64,000 bases of DNA from Actinoplanes sichuanensis (GTDB lineage: Bacteria > Actinomycetota > Actinomycetes > Mycobacteriales > Micromonosporaceae), in contig NZ_AP028461.1 in NCBI RefSeq assembly GCF_033097365.1, positions 8,742,001-8,806,000 on the forward strand, given 5' to 3'. The notes beneath the pieces were generated by a model. It saw only the letters and a program-made list of their open reading frames with translations, searched no databases and had not been told where the DNA came from. Below are positions 5,670-39,938 of the stretch, in pieces; the stretch's first letter is position 1, and every line of letters begins with the position of its first letter. Both the position numbers and the translations under genes were made by a program.

Positions 5670-6641
5670 TCAACGTCCGCGGAGGACACCGCCGATCTCA
5701 GCAAAATGGCAGGCGCTCGGGTGCGGTGACCGCTCCCTGATCTGCAGCACCGGCTCCTGCTCGGAGCAGACGTGCTGCGCCTTCCAGCAGCGGGTACGGA
5801 ACCGGCATCCGGACGGCGGATTCGCCGGCGACGGAACGTCGCCGTCCAGAATGATCTGCTTGCGGTGGCCACGCAGGCGCGGGTCCGGGACGGGCACGGC
5901 CGAGAGCAGAGCCTGGGTGTACGGGTGAGTCGGCTGGTCGTAGATGGCCACGTCGTGCCCCTGCTCGACGATCTTGCCGAGGTACATGACGGCGACCCGG
6001 TCGGAGATGTGCCGGACCACGGACAGGTCGTGGGCGATGAAGATGTAGGACAGCCCGAAGTCGTCCTGCAGCCGTTCCAGCAGGTTGATCACCTGCGCCT
6101 GGATGGACACGTCGAGCGCCGACACCGGCTCGTCGCAGACGATGATCTCCGGCTTGAGCGCCAGCGCCCGGGCGATGCCGATGCGCTGCCGCTGGCCACC
6201 GGAGAACTGGTGCGGGTAGCGGTTGATGTGGTCCGGGTTCAGGCCGACCGTGTCGAGCAGGTCCTGTACCGCCTGCTGCCGCTTGCCCTTCGGCACCACC
6301 TCGGAGTGGATCTCGAACGGCTCGCCGATGATGTCGCCGACGGTCATCCGCGGGTTGAGCGAGGTGTACGGGTCCTGCAGCACCATCTGGATGTTGCGGC
6401 GGGCCCGGCGCAGGTCGCCGCCCTTGAGCCGGGTGATGTCCTGGCCGCGCACCGCGACCGCCCCGGAGGTCGGCTTCTCCAGCCCGACCAGCATCTTGGC
6501 CAGCGTCGACTTGCCGCAGCCGGACTCACCGACCACGCCGAGCGTCTCGCCCCGACGCAGCTGGAGATTCACCCCGTCGACCGCCCGGACCTCCTTGAAG
6601 TGCTTGACCAGGTCGCGGGTCTCGAGAACGACGTCACTCAC
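5670..6641 (-). CDS. dppF: Dipeptide/oligopeptide ABC transporter ATPase (DppF/OppF type)
   Basis: Second ATPase subunit of a peptide importer. 323 aa from GTG 6641, which overlaps the dppD stop by 8 nt and follows GGGAGG; the longer in-frame extension lies inside dppD and is not used. Motifs: Walker A GESGCGKS, signature FSGGQRQRIGIARAL, Walker B IIVCDEPVSALD, then the C-terminal oligopeptide-transporter extension with the CRFRTRCWKA Cys cluster. Pairs with DppD on DppB/DppC. Last gene of the operon. Confidence 0.93.
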   Translation of the reverse strand: MSDVVLETRDLVKHFKEVRAVDGVNLQLRRGETLGVVGESGCGKSTLAKMLVGLEKPTSGAVAVRGQDITRLKGGDLRRARRNIQMVLQDPYTSLNPRMTVGDIIGEPFEIHSEVVPKGKRQQAVQDLLDTVGLNPDHINRYPHQFSGGQRQRIGIARALALKPEIIVCDEPVSALDVSIQAQVINLLERLQDDFGLSYIFIAHDLSVVRHISDRVAVMYLGKIVEQGHDVAIYDQPTHPYTQALLSAVPVPDPRLRGHRKQIILDGDVPSPANPPSGCRFRTRCWKAQHVCSEQEPVLQIRERSPHPSACHFAEIGGVLRGR

Positions 6642-7665
6642 CGAGGACCTCCCGGAAGAAGTGGCAGCGGGCGGTGCGGCGGGGCGCGATCGCGTACGCC
6701 GGTGGCGTCGGATCCTGCCGGCACGGTTCCTTGGCATAACCACACCGCGGGTTGAACGCGCAGCCGGTGGGGATGTCGGTCAACGCGGGCGGCAGGCCGC
6801 GGATCGCGGTGAGCGGCTGCCCCTTGCGGTCGAGCCGGGGAATCGACTCGAGCAACGCCCGCGTGTACGGGTGCCCGGGCCGCTCGTAGATGTCGTAGAC
6901 CGGGGCCTCCTCGACGACCCGGCCCGCATACATCACCGAGATCCGGTCGGCCACGTCCGCGACCACGCCCATGTCGTGGGTGATCAGGACCAGGCCCATG
7001 TTGCGTTGCCGCTGCAACTCGGCGAGCAGGCCCATGATCTGCGCCTGCACGGTCACGTCGAGCGCCGTGGTGGGTTCGTCGGCGATCAGCACCTCGGGGT
7101 CGAGGGCCAGCGCCATGGCGATCATGACGCGCTGGCGCATACCTCCGGAGAACTGGTGCGGGTAGTCGCTGAACCTGGATCGGGCGGCGGGTATCCGTAC
7201 CTGATCAAGAAGCTCGATGGCCTTGTTCTTGGCGTCCGCCCGGGACGTGCCGCGATGCGCCCGGAACAACTCGGCCAACTGGAAGCCGACCGAGTAGACC
7301 GGGTTCAGAGCGGACAACGCGTCCTGGAAGATCATCGCGATCTTGTTGGCCCGGACCCGGCGGCGCTCCTCCTCCCGCAGTTTCAGCAGGTCGACGCCGC
7401 GGTACCGGACCTCACCGCGGGTGATGTGCCCGGGTGGAGTCTCCAGGATGCCCATGATCGCCTGAGCGGTCACCGACTTGCCGCAGCCCGACTCACCGAG
7501 GATCGCCAGCGTCTCGCCGGGGTTCAGCCAGAAGCTCGCCCCGTTCACCGCCTTCGCCACGCCGTCCCGGGTGCGGAACTCCACGTGCAGGTCGTTGACC
7601 TGGAGCAGGGGCGCGCGGGGATCCAGTCCGGGTAGGACGTCCAGATGCGCCTTGATGTCGGTCAT
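6634..7665 (-). CDS. dppD: Dipeptide/oligopeptide ABC transporter ATPase (DppD/OppD type)
   Basis: First ATPase subunit. 343 aa from ATG 7665 (protein starts [10 protein letters not shown]), 7 nt after the dppC stop. Motifs: Walker A GESGCGKS, signature [15 protein letters not shown], Walker [13 protein letters not shown] and a C-terminal Cys-containing extension ([14 protein letters not shown]). Order and overlaps indicate co-translation with dppC and dppF. Confidence 0.93.
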
Positions 7666-7672
7666 ACCGGTA

Positions 7673-8554
7673 TCACCGCAGCTTCGGGTCGAAGGCGTCG
7701 CGGATCGCGTCGCCCAGCATGATGAAGGCCAACACGGTGGCCGCGAGAAAGACGGACGGCCAGACCAGTGGGGCGGCCGCCACCCGGGCGTGTTTCTGGG
7801 CGTCGGCGATCTGCAGCCCCCAGCTGATCGCGTCACCCTTCAGCCCCACCCCGAGGTAGGACAGCGTCGCCTCGGCCGCGATGTTGGCGCCCAGCAGCAC
7901 CGTCGACACCACGATGAACGGGGCGATCGCGTTCGGCAGGATGTGCCGGAACATCAGCCGGGCCGGGCTCGCGCCGAGCATCCGGGCCGCCGCCACGTAG
8001 TCCTGCCCCTTCGCCGCGACCACCGACGAGCGCATCACCCGGGCGGCCGAGGTCCAGGTCAGCAGACCGAGGGTGAGGGTCACCGCGGTGACGCCGTCGT
8101 CGCCGGAGCCGGAGAGCCGGGCGGAGAAGACCACGGCGCCGAGCAGCACCGGGATGCCGAGCACGATGTCGATGCCGCGGGACAGGACGGCGTCGATCGC
8201 ACCGCCGAAATAGCCCGCGGCCATCCCGAAGGCCAGCCCGATCAGTCCGGCCAGCAGGGTGGAGAACAGTCCGACCTGGATCGAGTTCCCGGTGCCGTGC
8301 ACGGTACGGGCGAACACGTCACAGCCCTGGAAGTCGTACCCGAACAGGGCGCCGCCGGAGGGACCGTCATGCTGCCGCGACAGGACACAGTCGGTGGGAT
8401 CGGCCGAGGTGAACAGCGTCGGGAACAGCGCCATCAGCAGCAGCAACAGAACCAGTGCGGAGGAGGCCCAGAAGATCTTGTTGCGACGCAGATCATTCCA
8501 CGCGTCGCCGGCGAGGCTACGCGGGCGGCTGTCGAGCGTGGTCGGGTCACTCAT
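7673..8554 (-). CDS. dppC: Peptide ABC transporter permease (DppC/OppC type)
   Basis: 293-aa inner-membrane subunit. A hydrophobic N-terminal segment (FWASSALVLLLLLMALFP) precedes an extracytoplasmic loop, then the binding-protein-dependent transport core with about five more membrane segments. The EAA loop reads AARMLGASPARLMFRHILPN, where the ATPases dock. ATG 8554 overlaps the dppB stop by 8 nt. Confidence 0.92.
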   Translation of the reverse strand: MSDPTTLDSRPRSLAGDAWNDLRRNKIFWASSALVLLLLLMALFPTLFTSADPTDCVLSRQHDGPSGGALFGYDFQGCDVFARTVHGTGNSIQVGLFSTLLAGLIGLAFGMAAGYFGGAIDAVLSRGIDIVLGIPVLLGAVVFSARLSGSGDDGVTAVTLTLGLLTWTSAARVMRSSVVAAKGQDYVAAARMLGASPARLMFRHILPNAIAPFIVVSTVLLGANIAAEATLSYLGVGLKGDAISWGLQIADAQKHARVAAAPLVWPSVFLAATVLAFIMLGDAIRDAFDPKLR

Positions 8555-9473
8555 AGCGGATCCTGGGGTCGAGGGCGGCGTAGAGCAGGTCGACGACGAG
8601 GTTCATCACCAGGAAGACGATCACCAGGACACTGACGAAGCCGACCACCATCGGCCCATCCTCGGTCCGGATCCCCTGGGCGAGCTTGGAACCGACGCCC
8701 GGGATGTTGAAGACCTCCTCGGTGACCAGCGCGCCGGACATCAGCACACCCAGGTCGACACCGATCAGGGTGATGAGCGGGATCAGCGAGTTGCGCAGCA
8801 CGTGCACCCAGATGATCCGGCGTGGCGCCAGGCCCTTGGCCCGGGCGGTCCGGACGTAGTCGGCACCCAGGTTCTCCACCACCGAGGTACGGGTGACCCG
8901 GAGCTGGGTGGCCACCACCGTGGTGGCCAGCACGATGGCCGGCAGCAGCAGTGCGTAGAAGGAGGCGTTGCGGGACGCGGTGGCCGGGAACCAGTCCAGT
9001 TCCATGGCGAAGATCCACTGGGCGACCGGGGCGAGGACGACGATCGGCAGGGCCAGCAGCAGGAGCGTGAAGGCCAGGGCGCCGTTGTCGAAGACGCCGC
9101 CGCGGCGGATGGCCGACCAGACGCCGGCGGCGAGCGCGAGTACACCCGCGATGACCAGGGCCATCAGCGCCAGCCGTACGGTCACCGGCCAGGCGGTCTC
9201 GAGCAGGGCGGAGATCTCCCGCCCGGAGATCGACTCGCCGAGATCACCGGTGAGCAGGTTCGTCATGTAGTGCCAGTACTGACCGAGAAAACCCTCGTCG
9301 AGATGGTAACGCTCAGTGAGGGCTTCTCGCAGAGAGTCACTGACTGGTTTCTCGCCCGCCAGCGCCTGGATGGGGTCGTCCTGGTTGGCGAACATCAGCG
9401 CGAATACCACGAAGGTGGCCCCGAAGAACGTCAGGATCATCTGCAGTAGGCGCCGCACGATGTAGCGGAACAT
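8547..9473 (-). CDS. dppB: Peptide ABC transporter permease (DppB/OppB type)
   Basis: 308 aa from ATG 9473 (starts MFRYIVRRLL, the usual DppB N-terminus). An in-frame upstream ATG at 9542 would add 23 residues and cannot be excluded. Six hydrophobic segments, with EAA loop YVRTARAKGLAPRRIIWVHVLRN. Forms the membrane pore with DppC. It is 129 bp downstream of dppA, with a hairpin in between. Confidence 0.92.
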   Translation of the reverse strand: MFRYIVRRLLQMILTFFGATFVVFALMFANQDDPIQALAGEKPVSDSLREALTERYHLDEGFLGQYWHYMTNLLTGDLGESISGREISALLETAWPVTVRLALMALVIAGVLALAAGVWSAIRRGGVFDNGALAFTLLLLALPIVVLAPVAQWIFAMELDWFPATASRNASFYALLLPAIVLATTVVATQLRVTRTSVVENLGADYVRTARAKGLAPRRIIWVHVLRNSLIPLITLIGVDLGVLMSGALVTEEVFNIPGVGSKLAQGIRTEDGPMVVGFVSVLVIVFLVMNLVVDLLYAALDPRIRYE

Positions 9474-9548
9474 ACGGATTCGAACTTCTTCCGCGGAGGG
9501 AGCGCCGGCCTCGTGAGCCGGCGACGGGAAAGGTCGGGTCACACAGTA

Positions 9549-9583
9549 GTGGCGTCACGGTCGCATACGCTCCGTGACGCCAC
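9549..9583 (-). terminator. Intra-operon hairpin between dppA and dppB
   Basis: Perfect 12-bp stem (9549-9560 with 9572-9583) and an 11-nt loop in the 129-bp dppA-dppB spacer. Such hairpins commonly let the binding protein be made in excess of the membrane complex by partial termination or 3'-end protection. Function inferred. Confidence 0.6.
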
Positions 9584-9602
9584 CAGTGTGCAATCGGTCA
9601 GA

Positions 9603-11237
9603 TCAGGCGACCGTTTCGATCTCGTACAGGTCGACCTTGCTGAACAGGTCCATCTCGACGTTCGCGACCCGCTCGGAGTAGCCGAACACGTTCTGGCCGT
9701 ACCGCAGCGGGATGACCGGCATCTCCTCGGCGAGAATGTCCTCGGCCGCCTGCCACTTCTTGATCGACGCCTCGGGGGTGGGCGCCGCCGAGCCCTGCTT
9801 GACCAGGGTGTCGAACGCGGTGTTGGACCAGCCGTAGTAGTTCGAGCCGCCGTTGGTGCCGTACAGCGGGTTGAGGTAGTTCTCCATCAGCGGGTAGTCC
9901 ATGATCCAGCCGAGACGGATCAGCCCGATGTCCTGGTGGTTCTGCAGCTTCTCCTGCATGACCGCGAACTTCGGCTCCTGCTCGCCGATGCACTTGACCT
10001 GCAGCGACGCACGGATCTGGTTGCAGGTCGCGTCGACCCAGGACTTGTGACCACCGTCGACGTTGTAGGTGATCTTGATTTCTTCCGGGCCGCCGTTCTC
10101 CCGGTACAGATCACGGGCCTTCGTCGGGCTGTAGTCGCAGGCCTCGCCGCAACTGCCCTCTCGGAAGCCGGCCACCACGGGCGAGACGAACGACTTCGCG
10201 GCGGTACGGGACCCGAGGAAGATCTGCGACGCGATCTCCTCCCGGTTGATCGCCATCGAGATCGCCTTACGCACGTTGGCGTTCTTGTACTGCGGGAGGA
10301 AGGTCGGGAAGCCGATGAACTCGAAGACCGAGTTCTCGCTCTTCTGGAACCGCTCACCGAGGTCGGCCGGCGCGTTGGCCAGGGCGTCCGTCGGGATGGT
10401 GGTCTGCACGTCGAGGTTGTTGCTGACCAGGTCGGCGTACGCCGCCATCTGGTCGCCGTAGATCTTCCAGGTGACGCCGTCGATCTTCGGGACCACACCC
10501 TTGAAGTCGGCGTACTTCTCCACGACGATCTTGTCGTCGTGCTCCCAACTGCCCTTCATCTTGAAGGGACCGTTGCCGATCAGCTTCTCCTCGAACCCCT
10601 TGGCGATCACGCCGTCAGAGGAGAAGGCCGCGTTGGGCAGCGGGTAGAACACGGAGTAGGCGATCACCGACTTGAAACTGGCGAACGGGGCGGAGAGCGT
10701 CACGCTGAAGGTCAGGTCGTCGATCTTCTTCAGGCCGGACATCTTGTTGGTGGTCGGCTCCGGCGCCTTCTCCGGACCATCACCGTCGGGGTCGAGCGGG
10801 TTCAGGTCGGTGTACCCGGCGATCCGATCGAAGAAGTAGCCGCCGCCCTGGGCGTTGGGCTTGTAGGCGCCGTAGTTCCACGCGTTGATGTAGTTGTCCG
10901 CGGTGACCGGCTCGCCGTTGTGGAAGGTGAAGCCCGGCTTGAGCTTGATGGTCCACACCCGGTTGTTCTTCGTCACCGAGATCTTCTCGGCCGCGATCTC
11001 GACCGGCTTCTTCTCCGCGTCGAAGCTGACCAGCGGGTAGAAGAGGGAGTTGAGCACCTGCGCGCTGCTGCTGTCGGTGGCGTTGGTGGGAAGAAGGTGC
11101 TGCGGCTCAGCAATGCCGATCACGACCGTGTTGGCGGTGTTCGTCGGATCCTCCGAGTCCCCACCGCCACAACCTGCGACCAACAAGGAGATGGCGGCCG
11201 CTACGGCCGCCATCTTCCACGGGCGTTTCCCAAGCAT
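9603..11237 (-). CDS. dppA: Peptide ABC transporter substrate-binding lipoprotein (DppA/OppA type)
   Basis: 544-aa family 5 extracellular solute-binding protein that captures peptides and delivers them to DppBC. ATG 11237 is preceded by GGAGG; the in-frame upstream extension lacks this. A lipoprotein signal with lipobox LVAGC near residue 21 is followed by a Gly/Ser/Asp linker. Family features include WTIKLKPGFTFHNGEPVTA and the RKAISMAINREEI segment. First gene of the leftward dppABCDF operon. Substrate class is inferred from family only. Confidence 0.93.
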   Translation of the reverse strand: MLGKRPWKMAAVAAAISLLVAGCGGGDSEDPTNTANTVVIGIAEPQHLLPTNATDSSSAQVLNSLFYPLVSFDAEKKPVEIAAEKISVTKNNRVWTIKLKPGFTFHNGEPVTADNYINAWNYGAYKPNAQGGGYFFDRIAGYTDLNPLDPDGDGPEKAPEPTTNKMSGLKKIDDLTFSVTLSAPFASFKSVIAYSVFYPLPNAAFSSDGVIAKGFEEKLIGNGPFKMKGSWEHDDKIVVEKYADFKGVVPKIDGVTWKIYGDQMAAYADLVSNNLDVQTTIPTDALANAPADLGERFQKSENSVFEFIGFPTFLPQYKNANVRKAISMAINREEIASQIFLGSRTAAKSFVSPVVAGFREGSCGEACDYSPTKARDLYRENGGPEEIKITYNVDGGHKSWVDATCNQIRASLQVKCIGEQEPKFAVMQEKLQNHQDIGLIRLGWIMDYPLMENYLNPLYGTNGGSNYYGWSNTAFDTLVKQGSAAPTPEASIKKWQAAEDILAEEMPVIPLRYGQNVFGYSERVANVEMDLFSKVDLYEIETVA

Positions 11238-11480
11238 GGGAGAGCCTCCTTCAGGGGCGCTCACGAGGGGTGTGTGAGTAGCAGCCACTGTGACACAGAG
11301 GCATCAAAACCCGGAGCGCCGTTACCAAGCCGATATTGGGCGTCTACGTGCGCAGAAATCCGCATGAGCGACCGTTTAGGCGGGTTTACCCACTCTGAAC
11401 AGGGATAACTCCATGCGGCTTCCAGCGCAGCACGGAGCGCAGCCTATCTGAAAAACCCTCAAGAAACCTGCCCGGAAGGG

Positions 11481-12149
11481 TCAGACCAGACGCCGATCGG
11501 CGGCCCATCGTGACAGTTCGTAACGGTTACTCATCTGCAATTTACGCAGAACGTTCGAAACGTGCGTCTCGACGGTCTTGATGGAGATGAACAACTCCTT
11601 GGCGATCTCCTTGTACGCATACCCCCGGGCCAGCAGGCGCAGAACCTCACGCTCGCGGTTGGTGAGCTGGTCCAGCTCCGGGTCGGCCACCGGCACGTCG
11701 GGCCGGGAGGCGAACGCGTCCAGCACGAACCCGGCCAGCCGCGGGCTGAACACCGCGTCGCCGTCGGCCACCCGGCGCACCGCGGCGGCCAGCTCGTCCG
11801 GCGAGATCGTCTTGGTCACATAACCACGGGCGCCGGCCCGGATGAGACCGATCACATCCTCCGCGGCGTCGGACACCGACAGAGCCAGGAACTTGACCTG
11901 CGGGTGGGAACGGCGCACCGACTCCAGCACCGCCCGGCCACCGCCATCGGGCATGTGCACGTCGAGCAACACCACATCCGGCTGCACCGCGGCGATCCGG
12001 CTGATCGCCTCGCTCACCGTGCTCGCCTCCCCCACCACGTCGACGTGCACGCCCAGTTCGGCGCGCACCCCGGCGCGGAACATCGCGTGGTCGTCGACCA
12101 GGAAGACGTTGAGCCGACGGGCTTCCGGCTCGGTCACGGGCTCGCTCAT
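11481..12149 (-). CDS. Two-component response regulator, NarL/LuxR family
   Basis: 222 aa. Receiver domain with acidic pair D19-D20 and phosphoacceptor D63 (VVLLDVHMPDGGG); C-terminal LuxR-type HTH (LTNREREVLRLLARG...YKEIAKELFISIKTVETHVSNVLRKL). It is translationally coupled (ATGA) to the kinase just upstream. By analogy with other PspC-kinase pairs it probably controls cell-envelope stress genes, perhaps including the divergent PspC membrane operon; the targets are not visible. Confidence 0.9.
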   Translation of the reverse strand: MSEPVTEPEARRLNVFLVDDHAMFRAGVRAELGVHVDVVGEASTVSEAISRIAAVQPDVVLLDVHMPDGGGRAVLESVRRSHPQVKFLALSVSDAAEDVIGLIRAGARGYVTKTISPDELAAAVRRVADGDAVFSPRLAGFVLDAFASRPDVPVADPELDQLTNREREVLRLLARGYAYKEIAKELFISIKTVETHVSNVLRKLQMSNRYELSRWAADRRLV

Positions 12150-33878: not shown

Positions 33879-35396
33879 TCAGCCGCCCCGGATCCGGCGC
33901 AGCGCACGGGCGAGAACCGATCCGGTGGGCGCGGTCGGCTCCGGTTCCGGCGGGCGGGGGATCCGGTCCGGCTCGCGGGCCGGCATCGGGATCCGCAGCT
34001 CCGGCCGGGTCCGTGCGTCCAGGGCGGCCACCAGCGCCGGCCCGTCCGGGTAGAGGGTCGGCTCGACCCGCAGCTGGGCGGCGTCGTGACCGATGAAGAT
34101 CCGGCCGCCGTCCGGCCAGGCGAGCACGGCCGAGCACTCGTCGAAGAGCACGGTGATCGTCGAGCCCTGTCGGATCAGGCTGAACCCGCGCTCACCGGCG
34201 ACCAGGCTCGGCGCCGAACCCCCGAGCGCCCGGTAGGTCACCCCGTCGACCAGCGGCACCGACGAGACCGGCGCGTCGACGAACCCGGCCCAGTCGGCCT
34301 GGGTCTCCCCCGGTGTCATCAGCAGGCCGTCGGCGTAGGCCTCGGCGGCGACCGTGACCACATCGCCGAGCGTGACCGCGTCCAGCTCGGCCAGCACCTC
34401 GTCGAGCTCGCGCACCGGCCGGCCGTCGAGCAGATCGAAGGCCTGGCCGGGCAGCCGTCCCCCGGTGGTGTCGGCCTGCCTGAGTTCCTCGCGGCGCTTG
34501 TTGACGACCGCGGTCACCTCGGCCTCGTCGATCATGCCGAGGCGGACCGCGGCCAGGACGTCGATCAACCCGCCGAGTACCGCACCCTGCTTCTCGGGCA
34601 GCGAGTCGGCGGCCGCCATGATCACGGCACGGCCGTCGGCCCGAGGTGTGTAGTCGGTCACCACGTTGTAGGAGAGGCCACCCTCCTGCCGCAGCGAGCG
34701 GAACATCGACCGGCGCAGCACCTCGGCGAAGACCGCCGCCGGCTCACCGCGGTCGACCACGGCGTCCCAGGCGACCGCGTCCTCGGAGCCGGGGAAGTAC
34801 GCCGGGCGTACCGGAAGGATCGAAGAAGGCACCGGGGCCGGCTGACGCGTGCCGTCCGGCAGATCGAGCCGCAGGCCGGCGGGTACGCCGGGCCCGGCGA
34901 TCCAGAGCACCGCGTTGCCCCGATGGAAGTAGCGGGCCACCCAGGCGCGCAGATCGTCGGGGGTGATCGCCGCGAGGCCCCACTCCGGGTAGCTGGCCAG
35001 GCCGTAGTCACGGGCGCCGTGCCGCCACAGGGCCAGCCGCCCGGCCGGGCCCTCGCCCCGGGAGTTCTGCTCGGTCCGCAGGATCTCCTTCTCCACGGCG
35101 AGCCGCTGCATCGGCAGATCGGCCAGGCCGGCGCAGACGCCGTGCAGGAACGCCACGATGTCGGCCTCGGCGCCCTGCATGTGGAAGACGGTGTGCTCGA
35201 CACCGGTGGCCCCGTTGAAGTGGTAGTCGGCGACCCCGAGCGAGTGCAGTGCCAGGTGCTCGATCAGGTGTGTGATGCCGCGCCGGGACAGTGACTCGTC
35301 GACGAAACCGACCCGGAAGGCGAGGCCGGCGGTCATCGGCCCGGTGGTCGGCGCGATCAGCACCGGTACGCCGTCCACCTCCTGCCGAAGTGTCAT
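33879..35396 (-). CDS. M16 (pitrilysin) family zinc peptidase, apparently active
   Basis: 505 aa from ATG 35396 (MTLRQEVDGV), ATGA-coupled to the helical paralogue just upstream. Inverted zinc motif HLIEH (His43, Glu46, His47) with a plausible third ligand in the VEKEIL helix about 75 residues later. A second M16 domain follows (about 185-370), then a C-terminal segment (VLAWPDGGRIFIGHDAAQLRVEPTLY, PMPAREPDRIPRPPEPEP) shared with the paired homologue at 36356-38002. No signal peptide or membrane helix. Family members degrade peptides inside a clamshell chamber and often work as active/inactive pairs. Substrate unknown. Confidence 0.85.
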   Translation of the reverse strand: MTLRQEVDGVPVLIAPTTGPMTAGLAFRVGFVDESLSRRGITHLIEHLALHSLGVADYHFNGATGVEHTVFHMQGAEADIVAFLHGVCAGLADLPMQRLAVEKEILRTEQNSRGEGPAGRLALWRHGARDYGLASYPEWGLAAITPDDLRAWVARYFHRGNAVLWIAGPGVPAGLRLDLPDGTRQPAPVPSSILPVRPAYFPGSEDAVAWDAVVDRGEPAAVFAEVLRRSMFRSLRQEGGLSYNVVTDYTPRADGRAVIMAAADSLPEKQGAVLGGLIDVLAAVRLGMIDEAEVTAVVNKRREELRQADTTGGRLPGQAFDLLDGRPVRELDEVLAELDAVTLGDVVTVAAEAYADGLLMTPGETQADWAGFVDAPVSSVPLVDGVTYRALGGSAPSLVAGERGFSLIRQGSTITVLFDECSAVLAWPDGGRIFIGHDAAQLRVEPTLYPDGPALVAALDARTRPELRIPMPAREPDRIPRPPEPEPTAPTGSVLARALRRIRGG

Positions 35397-36334
35397 GGTG
35401 TCCCCTCGTACGCCCAAGCCCGAGCCTCCCGAATCTGCGCATTCACGTCATTGCCGATCTGGTTCCACGGGTACTCCGCGGCCAGGTTGCCGAGCCGGGT
35501 GAACGCGGTCGCCGCGGACCGCCGATCGTCGAGCATCGTGAAGATCAGCGCGAACGCGTTCAACGCCTGCACCCAGCCCGGCCCGGTCCGGAACTCCGGA
35601 TGCCAGATCGACCGGTGCGCCGCCTCGTAGATCTCGGTACGGACCGCGTCGCCCGCCAGATACCGGAAGACGTCCGTGTCGTCGTCGCCGAAGATGTGCT
35701 CGACATGCGCGTGGACGACCAGTACCGCGTGCGGCGAACCGGGCGGGGCGGCCAGCATCGCGTCCCGGGCGAACTCGTGCAGCAGCTCCCAGGTGCCGTC
35801 CCACTTCGGGCAGGCGGTCTGCAGGAACTGGAGCTGGGCCGGCAGGTGGTGGGGCTGGGCGGCCAGCGCCCGGTCCAGCCGGCGACGCGACTCGGCCAGG
35901 CCCAGTTGCAGGCCGCGTGCGGTGAGCAGCCGAGCGGTCCAGATCGCCGGGTCCCTCGGATGGCGGGCGGCCGCGTCGATCAGGACCAGTTCGGCCTTGC
36001 GCAACCAGTCGTGGAACATGCGGAACTGCCCGGAACTCACGTGCTCGGCATACCGCCCGGAGCGGATCTCCCAACCGTTGTGGATCAGGTGGTGGCCGAG
36101 CAGCGCGGCGGCGGCGGCATCGGTGACGTCGGCGGCGAGCACACCACGGAGGAACTCCTCCAGCCCGGGCTCACCCGCGCAGGCCTGCAGAGCGGCGCTG
36201 CGGGCCATCGGCTCCAACTGGTCGAGCAGGGCCCGGCCGCCCGGCCAGTCTCGGCGGTGGAGCGCCGCCCGCAGCCCGGCGATCTCCGGGTACGCGGCCG
36301 CCCCGTCGAGCACCACGTCGCTGGATCCGATCAT
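35393..36334 (-). CDS. Helical-repeat-like protein of unknown function (paralogue B)
   Basis: 313 aa from ATG 36334, which has TATAGT 7 nt upstream and no ribosome binding site. One of three paralogues here sharing AAYP, DW..(C/G)RA.LD..EP, HPRDPAIWTARL-type, CPKW.G.W, H.H.E, RSIWHPEFR, GWV..LN.FA and a C-terminal PW. Mostly alpha-helical, TPR-like spacing. The phrasing recalls DUF4034-type proteins but I cannot confirm this. No signal or membrane segment. ATGA-coupled to the active M16 peptidase, so it probably works with it as substrate, adaptor or regulator. Confidence 0.8.
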   Translation of the reverse strand: MIGSSDVVLDGAAAYPEIAGLRAALHRRDWPGGRALLDQLEPMARSAALQACAGEPGLEEFLRGVLAADVTDAAAAALLGHHLIHNGWEIRSGRYAEHVSSGQFRMFHDWLRKAELVLIDAAARHPRDPAIWTARLLTARGLQLGLAESRRRLDRALAAQPHHLPAQLQFLQTACPKWDGTWELLHEFARDAMLAAPPGSPHAVLVVHAHVEHIFGDDDTDVFRYLAGDAVRTEIYEAAHRSIWHPEFRTGPGWVQALNAFALIFTMLDDRRSAATAFTRLGNLAAEYPWNQIGNDVNAQIREARAWAYEGTP

Positions 36335-36341
36335 GGCGCGC

Positions 36342-36347
36342 ACTATA
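36342..36347 (-). promoter_or_regulatory. -10 box for leaderless transcript of paralogue B
   Basis: TATAGT on the minus strand, 7 nt before ATG 36334, lying in the 21-bp gap after the preceding M16-like gene. Confidence 0.55.
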
Positions 36348-36355
36348 GAGCCACT

Positions 36356-38002
36356 TCACCCGCGGCGGCTGCCCAGTTCCCGTGCGGCGGCCCAGCTGTA
36401 GCGGCCGAAGAGGATGCCGAAGACGACCGATCCGCCGAGTGCCAGCAGGTCCTCGCCGCGTGGGTTGCCGGTGCCCGGACCGGCCAGCAACTGGGTCAGG
36501 ATCCAGACACCACCGCTGACGAAGAAGAGCGCGAGCAGACCGCAGAGGATCGCCGCGACGTATCGCCGCACCACGCCGTCCCGGGGTGCGGGCTCCGGCT
36601 GCGGGATCCGGTCGCGGTCGCGGGCCGGCATCTCGATCCGCAGTCGCTCCGGGATTCGGGCGTCCACCTCGCGCACCACCCGGTCGGCGTGCCGATAGAG
36701 GGTCGGCTCGACCCGGACCGTCACGGCGTCCTCGCCGATCAGGTGGCGGCCGCCGTCCGGCCAGGCCAGCAGGGCCGCGCACGCGTCCCAGCGGACTGCG
36801 GCGACCATGTCGCGGCCGGTCACGCCGATCCCTTCGGAGCCGCTGATCAGCCGTCGGGACCGGTCCCGACGGCCACGATGGACCCGGCCGGCCGGCACGC
36901 TGTCGGACATCGCCGGGGCGGCGGTGTACCCGGCCCACTCGGCGGTGCTGCCGGGCGGGGTCATCAGCAGGCCGGCGTCGTACGCCTCCTCGGCGACCCG
37001 GGCCACCTCGGCCGCGGTGACCGCCCGCACCTCGGCGAGCGCCTCCTCCAGGGGTTGCACCTCGCGTCCGGCGAGCAGGTTGAACGCCTGGCCGGGCAGG
37101 CGTGCGCCACGCGACTCGGACTGGCGCAGGCCCTCGCACGTGAGCTTCACCACGGCGGCCACCTCGTCCGGGTCGATCCGGCCGGCCCGCATCGAGGCCA
37201 GCACGTCGACCAGACCGCCGTGGGCGGCTTCCGGCTCCGCCGGCAGCGGCTCGGCGATCGTCAGGATCCGCGCGGTGCCGTCGGCCCGGGGGACGTACTC
37301 GGTACGGGTGTGGGTGGTGAGGTCGCGCAGATCGCGGCGGACCCGGCGCTCCAGAACGTTGGCGAAGACCGCCGCACCCGGACTCCGGGCGATCACCGTG
37401 TCCCAGCCGACCCCGCCGGTGAACCAGGCCGGTGTGACCGGCAGGGTGGTGGCGACGGACGGTGGCGGCTGCCGCTCGCCGGTCGGGAGATTCAGGCTCA
37501 GCCCTTCGGGGACCTCGTCGCCGGCCACCCAGAGCGCCGCATTCTCCCTGGTGAAATAGCGGGCGATCCACTCCCGGAGGTGGTCGGCGGTGAGCCCGGG
37601 CAGTGCCCACTCGGGATAGCTGACGACACCGAATCCACGGGCGCCGTGCCGCCACATCGGCAGCGGGTCACGCTCCGGCTGAGCACCCTGGACCAGGTCG
37701 CGCACCTCGGCGAGCCGCCCGGTCGGCGGGTCACGCAACGCGTCGCAGACGCCGGTGAGGAATTCGGTGATCTCGGTGGCCGAACCCTGCACGTGGAAGT
37801 AGGTGTGTTCCGGCCCGGTCGTCCAGCTCGTCTGTCCGGTCGCGCCGAGACCGTCGGTCACCAGGTGCTCGACCAGGCGGGTGATGCCACGCCGGGCCAG
37901 CGGCTCGTCCGCCGTGCCGACCCGGAAGACCAGACCGGCGTGGGCCGGGCCGGTCACCTGCGCGAGCACCGCCGGGATGCCGTCGACCTCCATCCGTCTC
38001 AT
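36356..38002 (-). CDS. M16 peptidase homologue with lost zinc motif, membrane-anchored
   Basis: 548 aa from ATG 38002, ATGA-coupled to paralogue A. It aligns with the neighbouring M16 enzyme along its length (GITRLVEHLV against GITHLIEHLA). The first zinc His is Arg42, and the acidic third-ligand helix (AEVRDLVQGA) is altered, so it should be catalytically dead. The shared C-terminal block (RVEPTLY, EMPARDRDRIPQPEP) is followed by two membrane helices absent from the active partner (about 470-495 and 510-535). Best read as the inactive, membrane-anchoring half of an M16 heterodimer; the pairing is inferred. Confidence 0.85.
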   Translation of the reverse strand: MRRMEVDGIPAVLAQVTGPAHAGLVFRVGTADEPLARRGITRLVEHLVTDGLGATGQTSWTTGPEHTYFHVQGSATEITEFLTGVCDALRDPPTGRLAEVRDLVQGAQPERDPLPMWRHGARGFGVVSYPEWALPGLTADHLREWIARYFTRENAALWVAGDEVPEGLSLNLPTGERQPPPSVATTLPVTPAWFTGGVGWDTVIARSPGAAVFANVLERRVRRDLRDLTTHTRTEYVPRADGTARILTIAEPLPAEPEAAHGGLVDVLASMRAGRIDPDEVAAVVKLTCEGLRQSESRGARLPGQAFNLLAGREVQPLEEALAEVRAVTAAEVARVAEEAYDAGLLMTPPGSTAEWAGYTAAPAMSDSVPAGRVHRGRRDRSRRLISGSEGIGVTGRDMVAAVRWDACAALLAWPDGGRHLIGEDAVTVRVEPTLYRHADRVVREVDARIPERLRIEMPARDRDRIPQPEPAPRDGVVRRYVAAILCGLLALFFVSGGVWILTQLLAGPGTGNPRGEDLLALGGSVVFGILFGRYSWAAARELGSRRG

Positions 38003-38922
38003 GTGCCGCCTCCCGCCGCCCGCTTCCGATACTTCACGATCACCGATCCCGGGTCACCGAGGTAGTCCCAGGGACGTTCGGAACCGAGATCGCCGAGCTC
38101 GGTGAAGAGCGAATCAGCCGCCGGCCGATCGTCGAGCAGCGCGAACGCCATCGCGAACGTGCTCACCACCCGGACCCAGCCGTGGGTGTGCCGGAAGTCG
38201 GCATGCCACACCGAGCGGCGGGCCGCCTCGTGCAGATCGGCCCGGACCTGGTCGGCGGTGAGATAGCGGACGCCGGCCTCCAGCCAGTGCTCCAGATGCG
38301 CCTCGGCGATCAGCACCGGCCCGAACGACCCGCGCGGTGCGGCCTCGGCGGTCTCCCGGGCGAAGGCGTGCGCCCGCGCCCAGTCACCGCCCGACTTCGG
38401 GCACAACTGCTGGAGGAACTGCCACTGTCCGGGCAGGTGGTGCGGGTCGATCTCGGCCAGCCGGGCGTATCGGCGGTGCGCCTCGGACAGACCGAGCCGC
38501 AGGCCGCGCGCGGTGATCAGCCGGGCCGTCCAGATCGCCGGGTCGTGCGGGCTGCGGGCGGCGGCGTCGACGAGGAGCCGTTCGGCGGTCACCAGCCCGT
38601 CGGTGAACGCGGCCAGCCGTTCCGGGCTGACCTGCTCGGCCCGGGCGCTGGTCCGGATCCGCCAGGCCGCGCCGATCAGGTGCTGACCGAGCAGCGCGGC
38701 GGCCGCGCCGTCGCCGGGATCCCCGTCGAGCACGCCGCGCAGGAACGTCTCCAGGCCCGGCTCGGCGAAAGCGATCATGGTGAGTTCGGTGCGCTCGACG
38801 GGCTCGGCGGCGTCGAGGACGGCACGGCAGGCCGGCCAGTCCCCGGAGTCCAGGGCATCCCGCAGACCGGTGATCCGCGGGTAGGCGGCCGCCGGGTCCA
38901 GAACTGGTTGTCGCGGGAGCAT
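37999..38922 (-). CDS. Helical-repeat-like protein of unknown function (paralogue A)
   Basis: 307 aa from ATG 38922 (MLPRQPVLDPAAAYP). Same family as the proteins at 35393-36334 and 38985-39926; the closest match is to the latter at the N-terminus (VLDxAEPVERTEL). Conserved HLPGQWQFLQQLCPK, AEAHLEHW and RSVWHADFRHTHGWV. ATGA-coupled to the inactive M16 homologue, mirroring the paralogue B/active M16 pair. No signal peptide. Confidence 0.8.
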   Translation of the reverse strand: MLPRQPVLDPAAAYPRITGLRDALDSGDWPACRAVLDAAEPVERTELTMIAFAEPGLETFLRGVLDGDPGDGAAAALLGQHLIGAAWRIRTSARAEQVSPERLAAFTDGLVTAERLLVDAAARSPHDPAIWTARLITARGLRLGLSEAHRRYARLAEIDPHHLPGQWQFLQQLCPKSGGDWARAHAFARETAEAAPRGSFGPVLIAEAHLEHWLEAGVRYLTADQVRADLHEAARRSVWHADFRHTHGWVRVVSTFAMAFALLDDRPAADSLFTELGDLGSERPWDYLGDPGSVIVKYRKRAAGGGT

Positions 38923-38929
38923 GGCGGGC

Positions 38930-38935
38930 AGCATA
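38930..38935 (-). promoter_or_regulatory. -10 box for leaderless transcript of paralogue A
   Basis: TATGCT on the minus strand, 7 nt before ATG 38922; no ribosome binding site. Confidence 0.5.
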
Positions 38936-38984
38936 GATCTTCGGTGCGAGCGCCCACTCACGACGGTGGTCCTCGACCGTCCGA

Positions 38985-39926
38985 TCAGGACTCGCGGACG
39001 AAGGCGGTACGGAGTTTGTGCAGCCAGATGGTGGAGGCCGGGCTCGGCGCGAGGCTGCCCCACGGGTATTCGCTACCGAAGTCGCCGAGCATCCGGAACA
39101 TCGACTTGGCCGAGCGCAGATCGCCGCCCAGACTGAACGCCGCCGCGAACGTGTTCAGCACCAGCACCCAGCCGTGGCTGCGGCGGAACTCGGGATGCCA
39201 CACCGACCGGTTCGCCGCTTCCTTGATCACCGCCTGCACGCCGGCGACCGAGAGCCGGCGCCGGGCGCTGCCCCAGTCGTCATCGGTCGCCTCCTCGATG
39301 TGCGCCTCGGCGATGATCATGTGGTTGTGTGCGCCGAACGGGGCGGTGCCGGCCACCCGACCGACGAAGTCCCACACCGCCGGCCACGAGCCGCCCCATT
39401 TCGGGCAGAGCTGTTGCAGCAGCTGGAGCTGGCCGGGCAGGTGCTGAGGATCGATCTCGGCCAGCCTGTCGTAGCGGCGGCGGGCCTCGTCCTGACCCAA
39501 CTCCAGACCTCGGGCGACGGTGAGGCGGATCACCCACAGGGCCGGGTCGTCGGGCCGCCGTTCGGTCGCCGGATACAGCACATGCTCGGCCTGGCGCAGC
39601 TTCTCGTGGAACGCCTCGAACTGCTTACGGCTGACGTGCCGGGCCCGGTACGAACTACGGATCTCCCACCCGACGCGGACCAGGTACGAGCCGAGCACGG
39701 CGGCGGCGGTGCTGTCCTCGGGGTCCCGGTCGAGTACCTGCCGCAGCAACGGCTCGATGCCGTCGGTGTCCGAAGCGGACCGGATCAGCTCGGTACGCTC
39801 CACCGGCTCCGCCGAGTCCAGAACCGCCCGGCAGGCCGCCCAGTCACCGGCACGCAGCCCGGTCCGCAGCGTGGTCAGTTTCGGGTAGGCGGCGGCCGGA
39901 TCCATCACCGGTGGGCGCAGCAGCAT
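38985..39926 (-). CDS. Helical-repeat-like protein of unknown function (paralogue C)
   Basis: 313 aa from ATG 39926 (MLLRPPVMDPAAAYP). Third member of the local family, with CPKWGGSW, AEAHIEEA, RSVWHPEFRRSHGWVLVLNTFA and SEYPWGSL. Unlike A and B it has no M16 partner immediately downstream; paralogue A follows after 62 bp. It may be the remnant of a third pair or a free subunit. Confidence 0.78.
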   Translation of the reverse strand: MLLRPPVMDPAAAYPKLTTLRTGLRAGDWAACRAVLDSAEPVERTELIRSASDTDGIEPLLRQVLDRDPEDSTAAAVLGSYLVRVGWEIRSSYRARHVSRKQFEAFHEKLRQAEHVLYPATERRPDDPALWVIRLTVARGLELGQDEARRRYDRLAEIDPQHLPGQLQLLQQLCPKWGGSWPAVWDFVGRVAGTAPFGAHNHMIIAEAHIEEATDDDWGSARRRLSVAGVQAVIKEAANRSVWHPEFRRSHGWVLVLNTFAAAFSLGGDLRSAKSMFRMLGDFGSEYPWGSLAPSPASTIWLHKLRTAFVRES

Positions 39927-39932
39927 AGCCGC

Positions 39933-39938
39933 AGCGTA
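39933..39938 (-). promoter_or_regulatory. -10 box for leaderless transcript of paralogue C
   Basis: TACGCT on the minus strand, 6 nt before ATG 39926. Confidence 0.45.

What the first reader, a model, noticed from the sequence alone, without database searches (positions are those of the whole stretch)
33879..39926. Candidate new system: three paralogous helical proteins interleaved with an active/inactive M16 peptidase pair
Leftward order: paralogue C; paralogue A coupled (ATGA) to an M16 homologue lacking its zinc motif and carrying two membrane helices; paralogue B coupled (ATGA) to an M16 enzyme with an intact HxxEH. The repeated paralogue + M16 unit implies duplication of a two-gene module, followed by specialisation into a catalytic and a membrane-anchoring half. 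Active/inactive M16 pairing is known (mitochondrial MPP, some bacterial M16B pairs), but I know of no description with these helical partners. They might be adaptors, inhibitors, or the peptidase's substrates.
Basis: partly seen in the sequence, partly recalled or inferred. Interest (0 to 1): 0.75.

Follow-up and report, generated by a model that had tools for sequence, protein, structure and literature searches.

The report
TPR partner–M16B peptidase gene module
An actinobacterium (Actinoplanes) carries a duplicated two-gene unit, a helical TPR-type protein plus a zinc-peptidase-like protein, in which one peptidase copy has lost its active site and kept a membrane anchor while the other has kept the active site and lost the anchor.

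Summary

Duplication of a whole two-gene unit is supported by both trees, and tandem duplication most simply happened three times. In 19 of the 20 tandem loci read, the downstream copy keeps the whole active site and the upstream copy has lost the zinc site, the R/Y pair or both. One array (G022) breaks the rule. "Catalytic half plus anchoring half" fits the window's clade; in seven other loci the intact copy holds the anchor.

Coupling is strong but lineage-bound: 83 of 98 M16 matches in 150 family genomes have a TPR match just upstream; distant M16 kin lack it and distant TPR kin mostly stand alone. Best reading: a cytosol-facing M16B peptidase, membrane-tethered through Mα, with a dedicated TPR partner. 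Complex formation, activity and substrate are untested.

The parts
38985..39926 (-). TPR paralogue C (313 aa), no M16 partner of its own here
   Evidence: TPR_14 23.0 bits, just under the cut-off of 23.5; groups with L088 and L064 TPR genes
37999..38922 (-). TPR paralogue A (307 aa), partner of Malpha
   Evidence: clade of 7 A-type genes
36356..38002 (-). Malpha: M16B-like pseudo-peptidase (548 aa) with C-terminal membrane anchor; ATGA overlap with A
37865..37879 (-). RLVEH in place of HxxEH in Malpha
36497..36580 (-). strong membrane helix of Malpha (residues 475-502); weaker second stretch about residue 519
35393..36334 (-). TPR paralogue B (313 aa), partner of Mbeta; AlphaFold pLDDT 95.8, 16 helices
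33879..35396 (-). Mbeta: intact M16B peptidase subunit (505 aa), no C-terminal anchor; ATGA overlap with B
35256..35270 (-). HLIEH (residues 43-47) of Mbeta
35070..35072 (-). Glu109 of Mbeta, candidate third zinc ligand
   Evidence: alignment; ligand role inferred from M16 knowledge
34668..34691 (-). R236-Y243 pair segment of Mbeta
33972..34271 (-). third domain D3 of Mbeta (residues 376-475): seven strands and one helix in the model, no Pfam family
39933..39938 (-). TACGCT, -10 box 6 bases before the ATG of C
38930..38935 (-). TATGCT, -10 box 7 bases before the ATG of A
36342..36347 (-). TATAGT, -10 box 7 bases before the ATG of B

Best explanation
The unit is a two-gene operon, leaderless TPR gene plus translationally coupled M16B gene. 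It makes a peptidase on the inner (cytosolic) face of the membrane with a dedicated TPR partner. Ancestrally one M16B protein carried everything: zinc site, R/Y pair, third domain D3 and a C-terminal membrane anchor, presumably working as a homodimer with the active site shared between subunits. In the window's lineage the unit was duplicated. Mbeta kept the whole catalytic apparatus and lost the anchor; Malpha lost zinc ligands and Tyr243 but kept the anchor and stayed under selection. Malpha most likely binds Mbeta in the usual M16B clam-shell fashion and holds it, or its homodimer, at the membrane. The TPR proteins most likely bind the peptidase and present substrate, each to its own M16 copy; C is the leftover partner of a third, lost unit. 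Shown: gene order, overlap of the reading frames, motifs, predicted fold of B and Mbeta, duplication, constraint, co-inheritance. Inferred: leaderless transcription, translational coupling, complex formation, topology, adaptor role, peptidase activity, origin of C. Unknown: substrate.
Against: No interaction was measured or modelled. Malpha lacks Tyr243, so a Malpha/Mbeta dimer would lack the R/Y pair opposite the zinc. Some units keep only a catalytically incomplete M16 with its TPR partner (L064, L066, L079, L083, L171), so catalysis may not be the whole function. Six intact single copies lack the anchor, so it is not essential. In one of four matched comparisons the upstream copy evolves clearly faster than its downstream partner (G015/G028: dN/dS 0.52 against 0.36; the other three: 0.32/0.38, 0.47/0.45, 0.59/0.53). 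The TPR-M16 correlation does not correct for shared descent. Distant M16 relatives had no TPR neighbour, and two of them (L087, L140) have HxxGH.
Confidence: 0.5

Rival explanations
1. Obligate alpha-beta heterodimer with one split active site: zinc from one subunit, R/Y from the other, as in Sph2681/2682 and the lanthipeptide proteases Bcn-gP1/gP2 and PttP1/P2.
For: Upstream copies lose zinc but keep R/Y in L055, L056 and the broken L059; they keep the zinc residues but lose R/Y in 10 other tandem loci. The same asymmetry recurs in tandem loci of three genera. In L055 and L062 the two M16 genes follow each other directly, and in 10 of the 19 loci a single TPR gene was called for two M16 genes (L059, with one 130-aa TPR fragment, not counted). 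PMC8960859 passages describe pull-down of such pairs.
Against: In 6 of 19 tandem loci, the window among them, the upstream copy has lost both halves; every downstream copy of the 19 keeps both halves, so it could work as a homodimer. G022 (L075) has two intact copies. Three of the ten R/Y-losing copies (L166, L168, L169) have also lost Glu102.
Confidence: 0.25
2. The TPR proteins are inhibitors or antitoxin-like partners that keep the coupled peptidase silent until released.
For: TPR gene first in the pair and overlapping the enzyme's start; close co-inheritance.
Against: Loci with only a zinc-dead M16 still keep the TPR gene (L064, L066, L079, L083), where nothing is left to inhibit at that locus; TPR relatives stand alone elsewhere.
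Confidence: 0.1
3. The TPR proteins are the peptidase's substrates.
For: Adjacent genes; paired evolution.
Against: B is a compact, confidently predicted superhelix over nearly its whole length (pLDDT 95.8) with no obvious leader or disordered tail; TPR genes are kept next to dead copies.
Confidence: 0.05
4. A decaying redundant duplicate: Malpha is on its way out and the pattern has no functional meaning.
For: Several loci show broken or truncated members (TPR of L053 and L056, upstream M16 of L059, third copy of L075); upstream copy clearly faster in one of four comparisons.
Against: Malpha dN/dS is close to Mbeta's, and the upstream clade persists in many species as full-length frames; losses hit catalytic positions selectively.
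Confidence: 0.1

Closest known systems
Bacterial M16B pairs (Sph2681/2682, TTHA1264/1265, PA0371/0372, AlbF/AlbE)
   Same: M16B subunit fold, HxxEH zinc site, adjacent active and degenerate copies
   Different: Here the M16 genes come with TPR genes, a third C-terminal domain and, in most, a membrane anchor; the window's degenerate copy has lost Tyr of the R/Y pair too; the duplication recurs within one bacterial family
Mitochondrial processing peptidase alpha/beta
   Same: active copy plus homologous inactive copy; inactive copy without the R/Y pair
   Different: a glycine-rich loop was not looked for here; TPR gene and membrane anchor are features of the present unit
TPR adaptors of membrane-linked proteases (LapB for FtsH, passages of PMC8745692; NlpI for Prc, recalled)
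   Same: TPR protein beside a protease at a membrane, role in substrate turnover
   Different: unrelated protease families; the adaptor role here is inferred only
Lanthipeptide M16B proteases (Bcn-gP1/gP2, PttP1/P2; LxmP1/P2 and Cao15)
   Same: bacterial M16B with paired or split active sites, Cao15 in a Streptomyces (passages)
   Different: no lanthipeptide gene among the ten neighbours scanned here; the passages seen mention no TPR partner or anchor for the M16 protein
DUF4034 / TPR proteins
   Same: 10 of 57 TPR-family members match DUF4034 (best 1.9e-8)
   Different: the window's three show no DUF4034 match at E up to 1; 0 papers in the library hold the word DUF4034

Membership tests
M16B peptidase (Mbeta) | D1-D2 M16B subunit fold | tested here: met
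M16B peptidase (Mbeta) | HxxEH plus downstream Glu | tested here: met
   H43, E46, H47, E109; ligand role of E109 by alignment; spacing H47-E109 is 62, against 72-83 in the M16B rows of the review's table
[quoted passage not shown]
   R236, Y243
M16B peptidase (Mbeta) | works as a dimer | not testable with these tools
   no complex prediction available
complementary M16B heterodimer (Malpha with Mbeta, window) | degenerate subunit keeps the R/Y pair | tested here: not met
   R kept, Tyr replaced by Thr; met in L055 and L056
MPP alpha-type subunit (Malpha) | glycine-rich loop | not tested
   no alignment to MPP alpha was made
TPR superfamily (A, B, C) | TPR superhelix | tested here: met
DUF4034 | match to PF13226 over its cut-off | tested here: inconclusive
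   10 of 57 family members match at E up to 0.01, cut-off not shown; the window's three do not at E up to 1
lanthipeptide maturation locus | synthetase or precursor nearby | tested here: not met
   ten neighbours scanned: IMPDH, DUF5319, LuxR, WhiB, molybdopterin oxidoreductase, ROK, ABC permease, ATPase and binding protein, tRNA-editing domain; small precursors and unlinked genes not searched

The most novel reading that the evidence does not exclude
A membrane-tethered, TPR-partnered M16B peptidase system, not found described under the terms I searched, in which tandem duplication repeatedly drives homodimer-to-heterodimer evolution: in all but one of the arrays read, the promoter-proximal copy has lost one or both halves of the composite active site and the distal copy neither; the anchor may stay with either subunit, and often one TPR partner serves both.
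Probability: 0.4. Interest if true: 0.7.

Novelty: new variant of a known kind. Interest (0 to 1): 0.55.

Why it matters
M16B active/inactive pairs are well known, but how a homodimer becomes a heterodimer is rarely caught in the act. Here single-copy, duplicated, zinc-losing and R/Y-losing versions exist side by side in one genus and again in other genera, so the steps can be tested. The review passages seen say that data on cellular functions of prokaryotic M16 enzymes are scarce and substrates poorly defined (PMC12731061); a dedicated TPR partner gives a handle for finding one.

Tried and rejected
Pfam and NCBIfam on the five proteins gave little. The extra domain D3 has no Pfam family; its best PDB profile hits are the CPAP G-box at E 0.007-0.03 with no stretch passing on its own, so I do not assign it. 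Orphan TPR genes next to an M48-like (HELGH) peptidase looked like a second protease link: it lies beside the TPR gene in L092, L095, L101 and L106 and beside an uncalled TPR match in L104; L089 and L094, close kin of the first two, lack it there, so I left it as a lead. Ten neighbours of distant M16 genes show no shared pathway. A lanthipeptide role was considered and is not supported at the locus. The origin of C rests on its tree position alone. The 20 tandem loci were picked from search hits, not drawn at random, and I did not check that every tandem was read. The up/down label needs at least three changes on well-supported branches; separate duplications are the simplest cause, but gene conversion inside an older tandem could look alike, most of all for L170. 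dN/dS is by Nei-Gojobori on a high-GC genome, so absolute values are rough. My gene caller is a simple codon-bias script: it missed the TPR gene of L063 and called no M16 or TPR gene in L086, L091 or L104, and no M16 in L136. Literature: DUF4034 gave 0 papers; M16 with tetratricopeptide and Actinoplanes gave 2, seen as passages, neither describing this pair there; M16 peptidase with pleckstrin homology 0; M16, metallopeptidase, Actinoplanes, insulinase (three of four): 25 papers, 10 listed, none of the 10 with Actinoplanes; a few locus tags 0; pseudoenzyme terms 0.
Full report
WHAT IS THERE. The window is bases 8,742,001-8,806,000 of a 12.14-Mb single-contig genome. Names of close relatives place it in Actinoplanes. 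Five genes run leftward: C 39926-38985, A 38922-37999, Mα 38002-36356, B 36334-35393, Mβ 35396-33879. A/Mα and B/Mβ overlap as ATGA. Upstream lie a ROK regulator and an ABC transporter with a periplasmic-binding-type protein, downstream a molybdopterin oxidoreductase, WhiB and LuxR-type genes. The ROK-gene cluster flanks the M16 locus in 21 further loci, each from a different congener (in L069 the oxidoreductase is read in one frame with the M16), so the unit sits in an old, vertically inherited place.

HOW TIGHT IS THE PAIRING? Among 60 relatives, a TPR match was found in 37 and an M16 match in 33 at E 0.001, distant kin included. In loci read in detail, 42 of 62 M16 genes had the TPR gene immediately upstream on the same strand, 31 (32 after correcting one start) overlapping by 4 bases. 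In 150 genomes of the family, 83 of 98 M16 matches had a TPR match within 350 bases upstream. Seen from the TPR side: 51 of 54 matches of at least 200 bits were linked, 25 of 41 at 150-200, 4 of 30 at 120-150 and 3 of 25 at 70-120. In a 197-genome sample of the class, 13 had the M16 (E 1e-10) and 29 a TPR match (E 1e-5). One named Streptomyces locus (L011) has a distant TPR gene without M16. Six more distant M16 loci had no TPR gene (L134, L135, L137-L140), nor had L084, L085 and L087. So the pair is real and conserved in the window's family and in Streptomyces, but the M16 family reaches beyond the pairing and so does the TPR family.

TREES. M16-linked TPR proteins, C included, are one clade, 40 of 40, against 26 orphans (SH-aLRT 99). 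Upstream-type M16 copies (13) are one clade (99), downstream copies (11) one clade (93; 16 and 14 rows, both 99). A-type TPR genes group together (94). C groups with TPR genes L088_9 and L064_6 (92), whose neighbours are an M16 remnant and a zinc-dead M16. I infer that C is the survivor of a third unit. Over 54 pairs, TPR and M16 distances correlate (r 0.65, permutations at most 0.25); pairing in tandem loci agrees in 18 of 21 comparisons. Shared descent explains part of this.

THE ASYMMETRY. One search lists 20 loci with two or more M16 genes. In 19 the downstream copy has the full zinc site and R/Y pair. The upstream copy lacks zinc and R/Y in six (window, L054, L060, L062, L167, L176), zinc only in three (L055, L056 and L059, whose gene is broken into frames; its N-terminal piece reads RLVEH), and R/Y only in ten (L057, L058, L065, L166, L168, L169, L170, L173, L174, L175; three of these also lack Glu102). 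The exception is G022 (L075): two intact copies upstream and a 255-aa remnant downstream. The up/down label needs at least three changes on well-supported branches: Actinoplanes, genus g116, genus g153 — most simply three separate tandem duplications, though gene conversion could mimic this. For g116 the upstream branch is long, so its attachment is unsure. Loss is targeted: of 132 near-invariant positions in 23 intact copies, the seven zinc-dead upstream-type copies share six losses (H43, H59, L94, E102, K103, E109); the five R/Y-losing ones share seven (D57, L99, R150, S242, Y243, D264, K269) (L079, L081 and L082, which stand alone today, are counted as upstream-type). Mα does not look like a pseudogene: dN/dS 0.32 (Mβ 0.38, A 0.18, B 0.37, ROK neighbour 0.06; window/G007); in the other matched comparisons upstream/downstream are 0.47/0.45, 0.59/0.53 and 0.52/0.36. 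The unit evolves faster than the ROK gene beside it.

ANCHORS. In the window, L054, L056, L176 and, in another genus, L170, the intact copy lacks the membrane helix and the degenerate copy has it. In L057, L058, L062, L065, L173, L174, L175 it is the other way; in L055, L060, L166-L169 and the exception L075 both have it. No complete tandem locus lacks it in both. Few independent events lie behind this, so it is suggestive only.

EXPRESSION. TANNNT 6-7 bases before a start codon occurs in 27 of 42 linked TPR genes, 3 of 27 orphans, 8 of 61 M16 genes and 168 of 1236 other genes. PMC7682106 (passages) reports -10 TAnnnT and 1179 leaderless starts (14.03% of all CDS) in Actinoplanes sp. SE50/110. 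So each TPR gene probably starts a leaderless mRNA that also carries its M16 gene (inference).

MECHANISM. [quoted passage not shown] pairs with zinc on one protein and R/Y on the other are described (PMC12731061, PMC8960859, passages). A single-copy M16B of this family has both and could work as a homodimer. After duplication, an upstream copy that keeps one half can still serve in a heterodimer. The window's Mα has neither half complete, so it is most simply a structural partner; its anchor and the missing anchor of Mβ make tethering the simplest role. For the TPR protein, an adaptor role is chosen by analogy with LapB-FtsH (PMC8745692, passages) and because the gene stays beside catalytically dead copies, which argues against inhibitor or substrate.

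NOVELTY. Members of known superfamilies in an arrangement I did not find described in the nine library searches made, most of whose papers I saw only as listings. New variant of a known kind.

Noticed in passing
L053 (own genome, G000:C1:3716500-3736000), 10439-11172: A further TPR-M16 unit of the same genome whose TPR gene matches in two pieces (residues 7-197 and 237-292; only 95 aa called), while its M16 keeps HxxEH, Glu109 and R/Y.
   Followed up: partly
L052 (own genome, G000:C1:3686500-3706000), 9117-11764: A second, intact single TPR-M16 unit with anchor in the same genome.
   Followed up: partly
L079 (G021), 8624-11052: A lone A-type TPR gene with a zinc-dead M16 that has an upstream-type body and a C-terminal end resembling the downstream copy of L056, as if the tandem had collapsed; besides it one search shows only a distant partial M16 match in that genome.
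   Followed up: partly
L092, L095, L101, L104, L106: Distant TPR relatives beside a divergently transcribed M48-like (HELGH) peptidase; named by eye, no family scan made.
   Followed up: no
L069 (G027), 6452-9838: M16 gene and downstream molybdopterin oxidoreductase read as one 1128-aa frame: fusion or sequence error.
   Followed up: no
L177 (G386) and L178 (G326): Close TPR relatives (over 200 bits to C) without an M16 neighbour, possibly counterparts of C; not placed in the tree.
   Followed up: no
L002/L004 and L003/L005 (own genome, 10.39 and 10.68 Mb): Two neighbouring pairs of other M16-family genes elsewhere in the genome.
   Followed up: no
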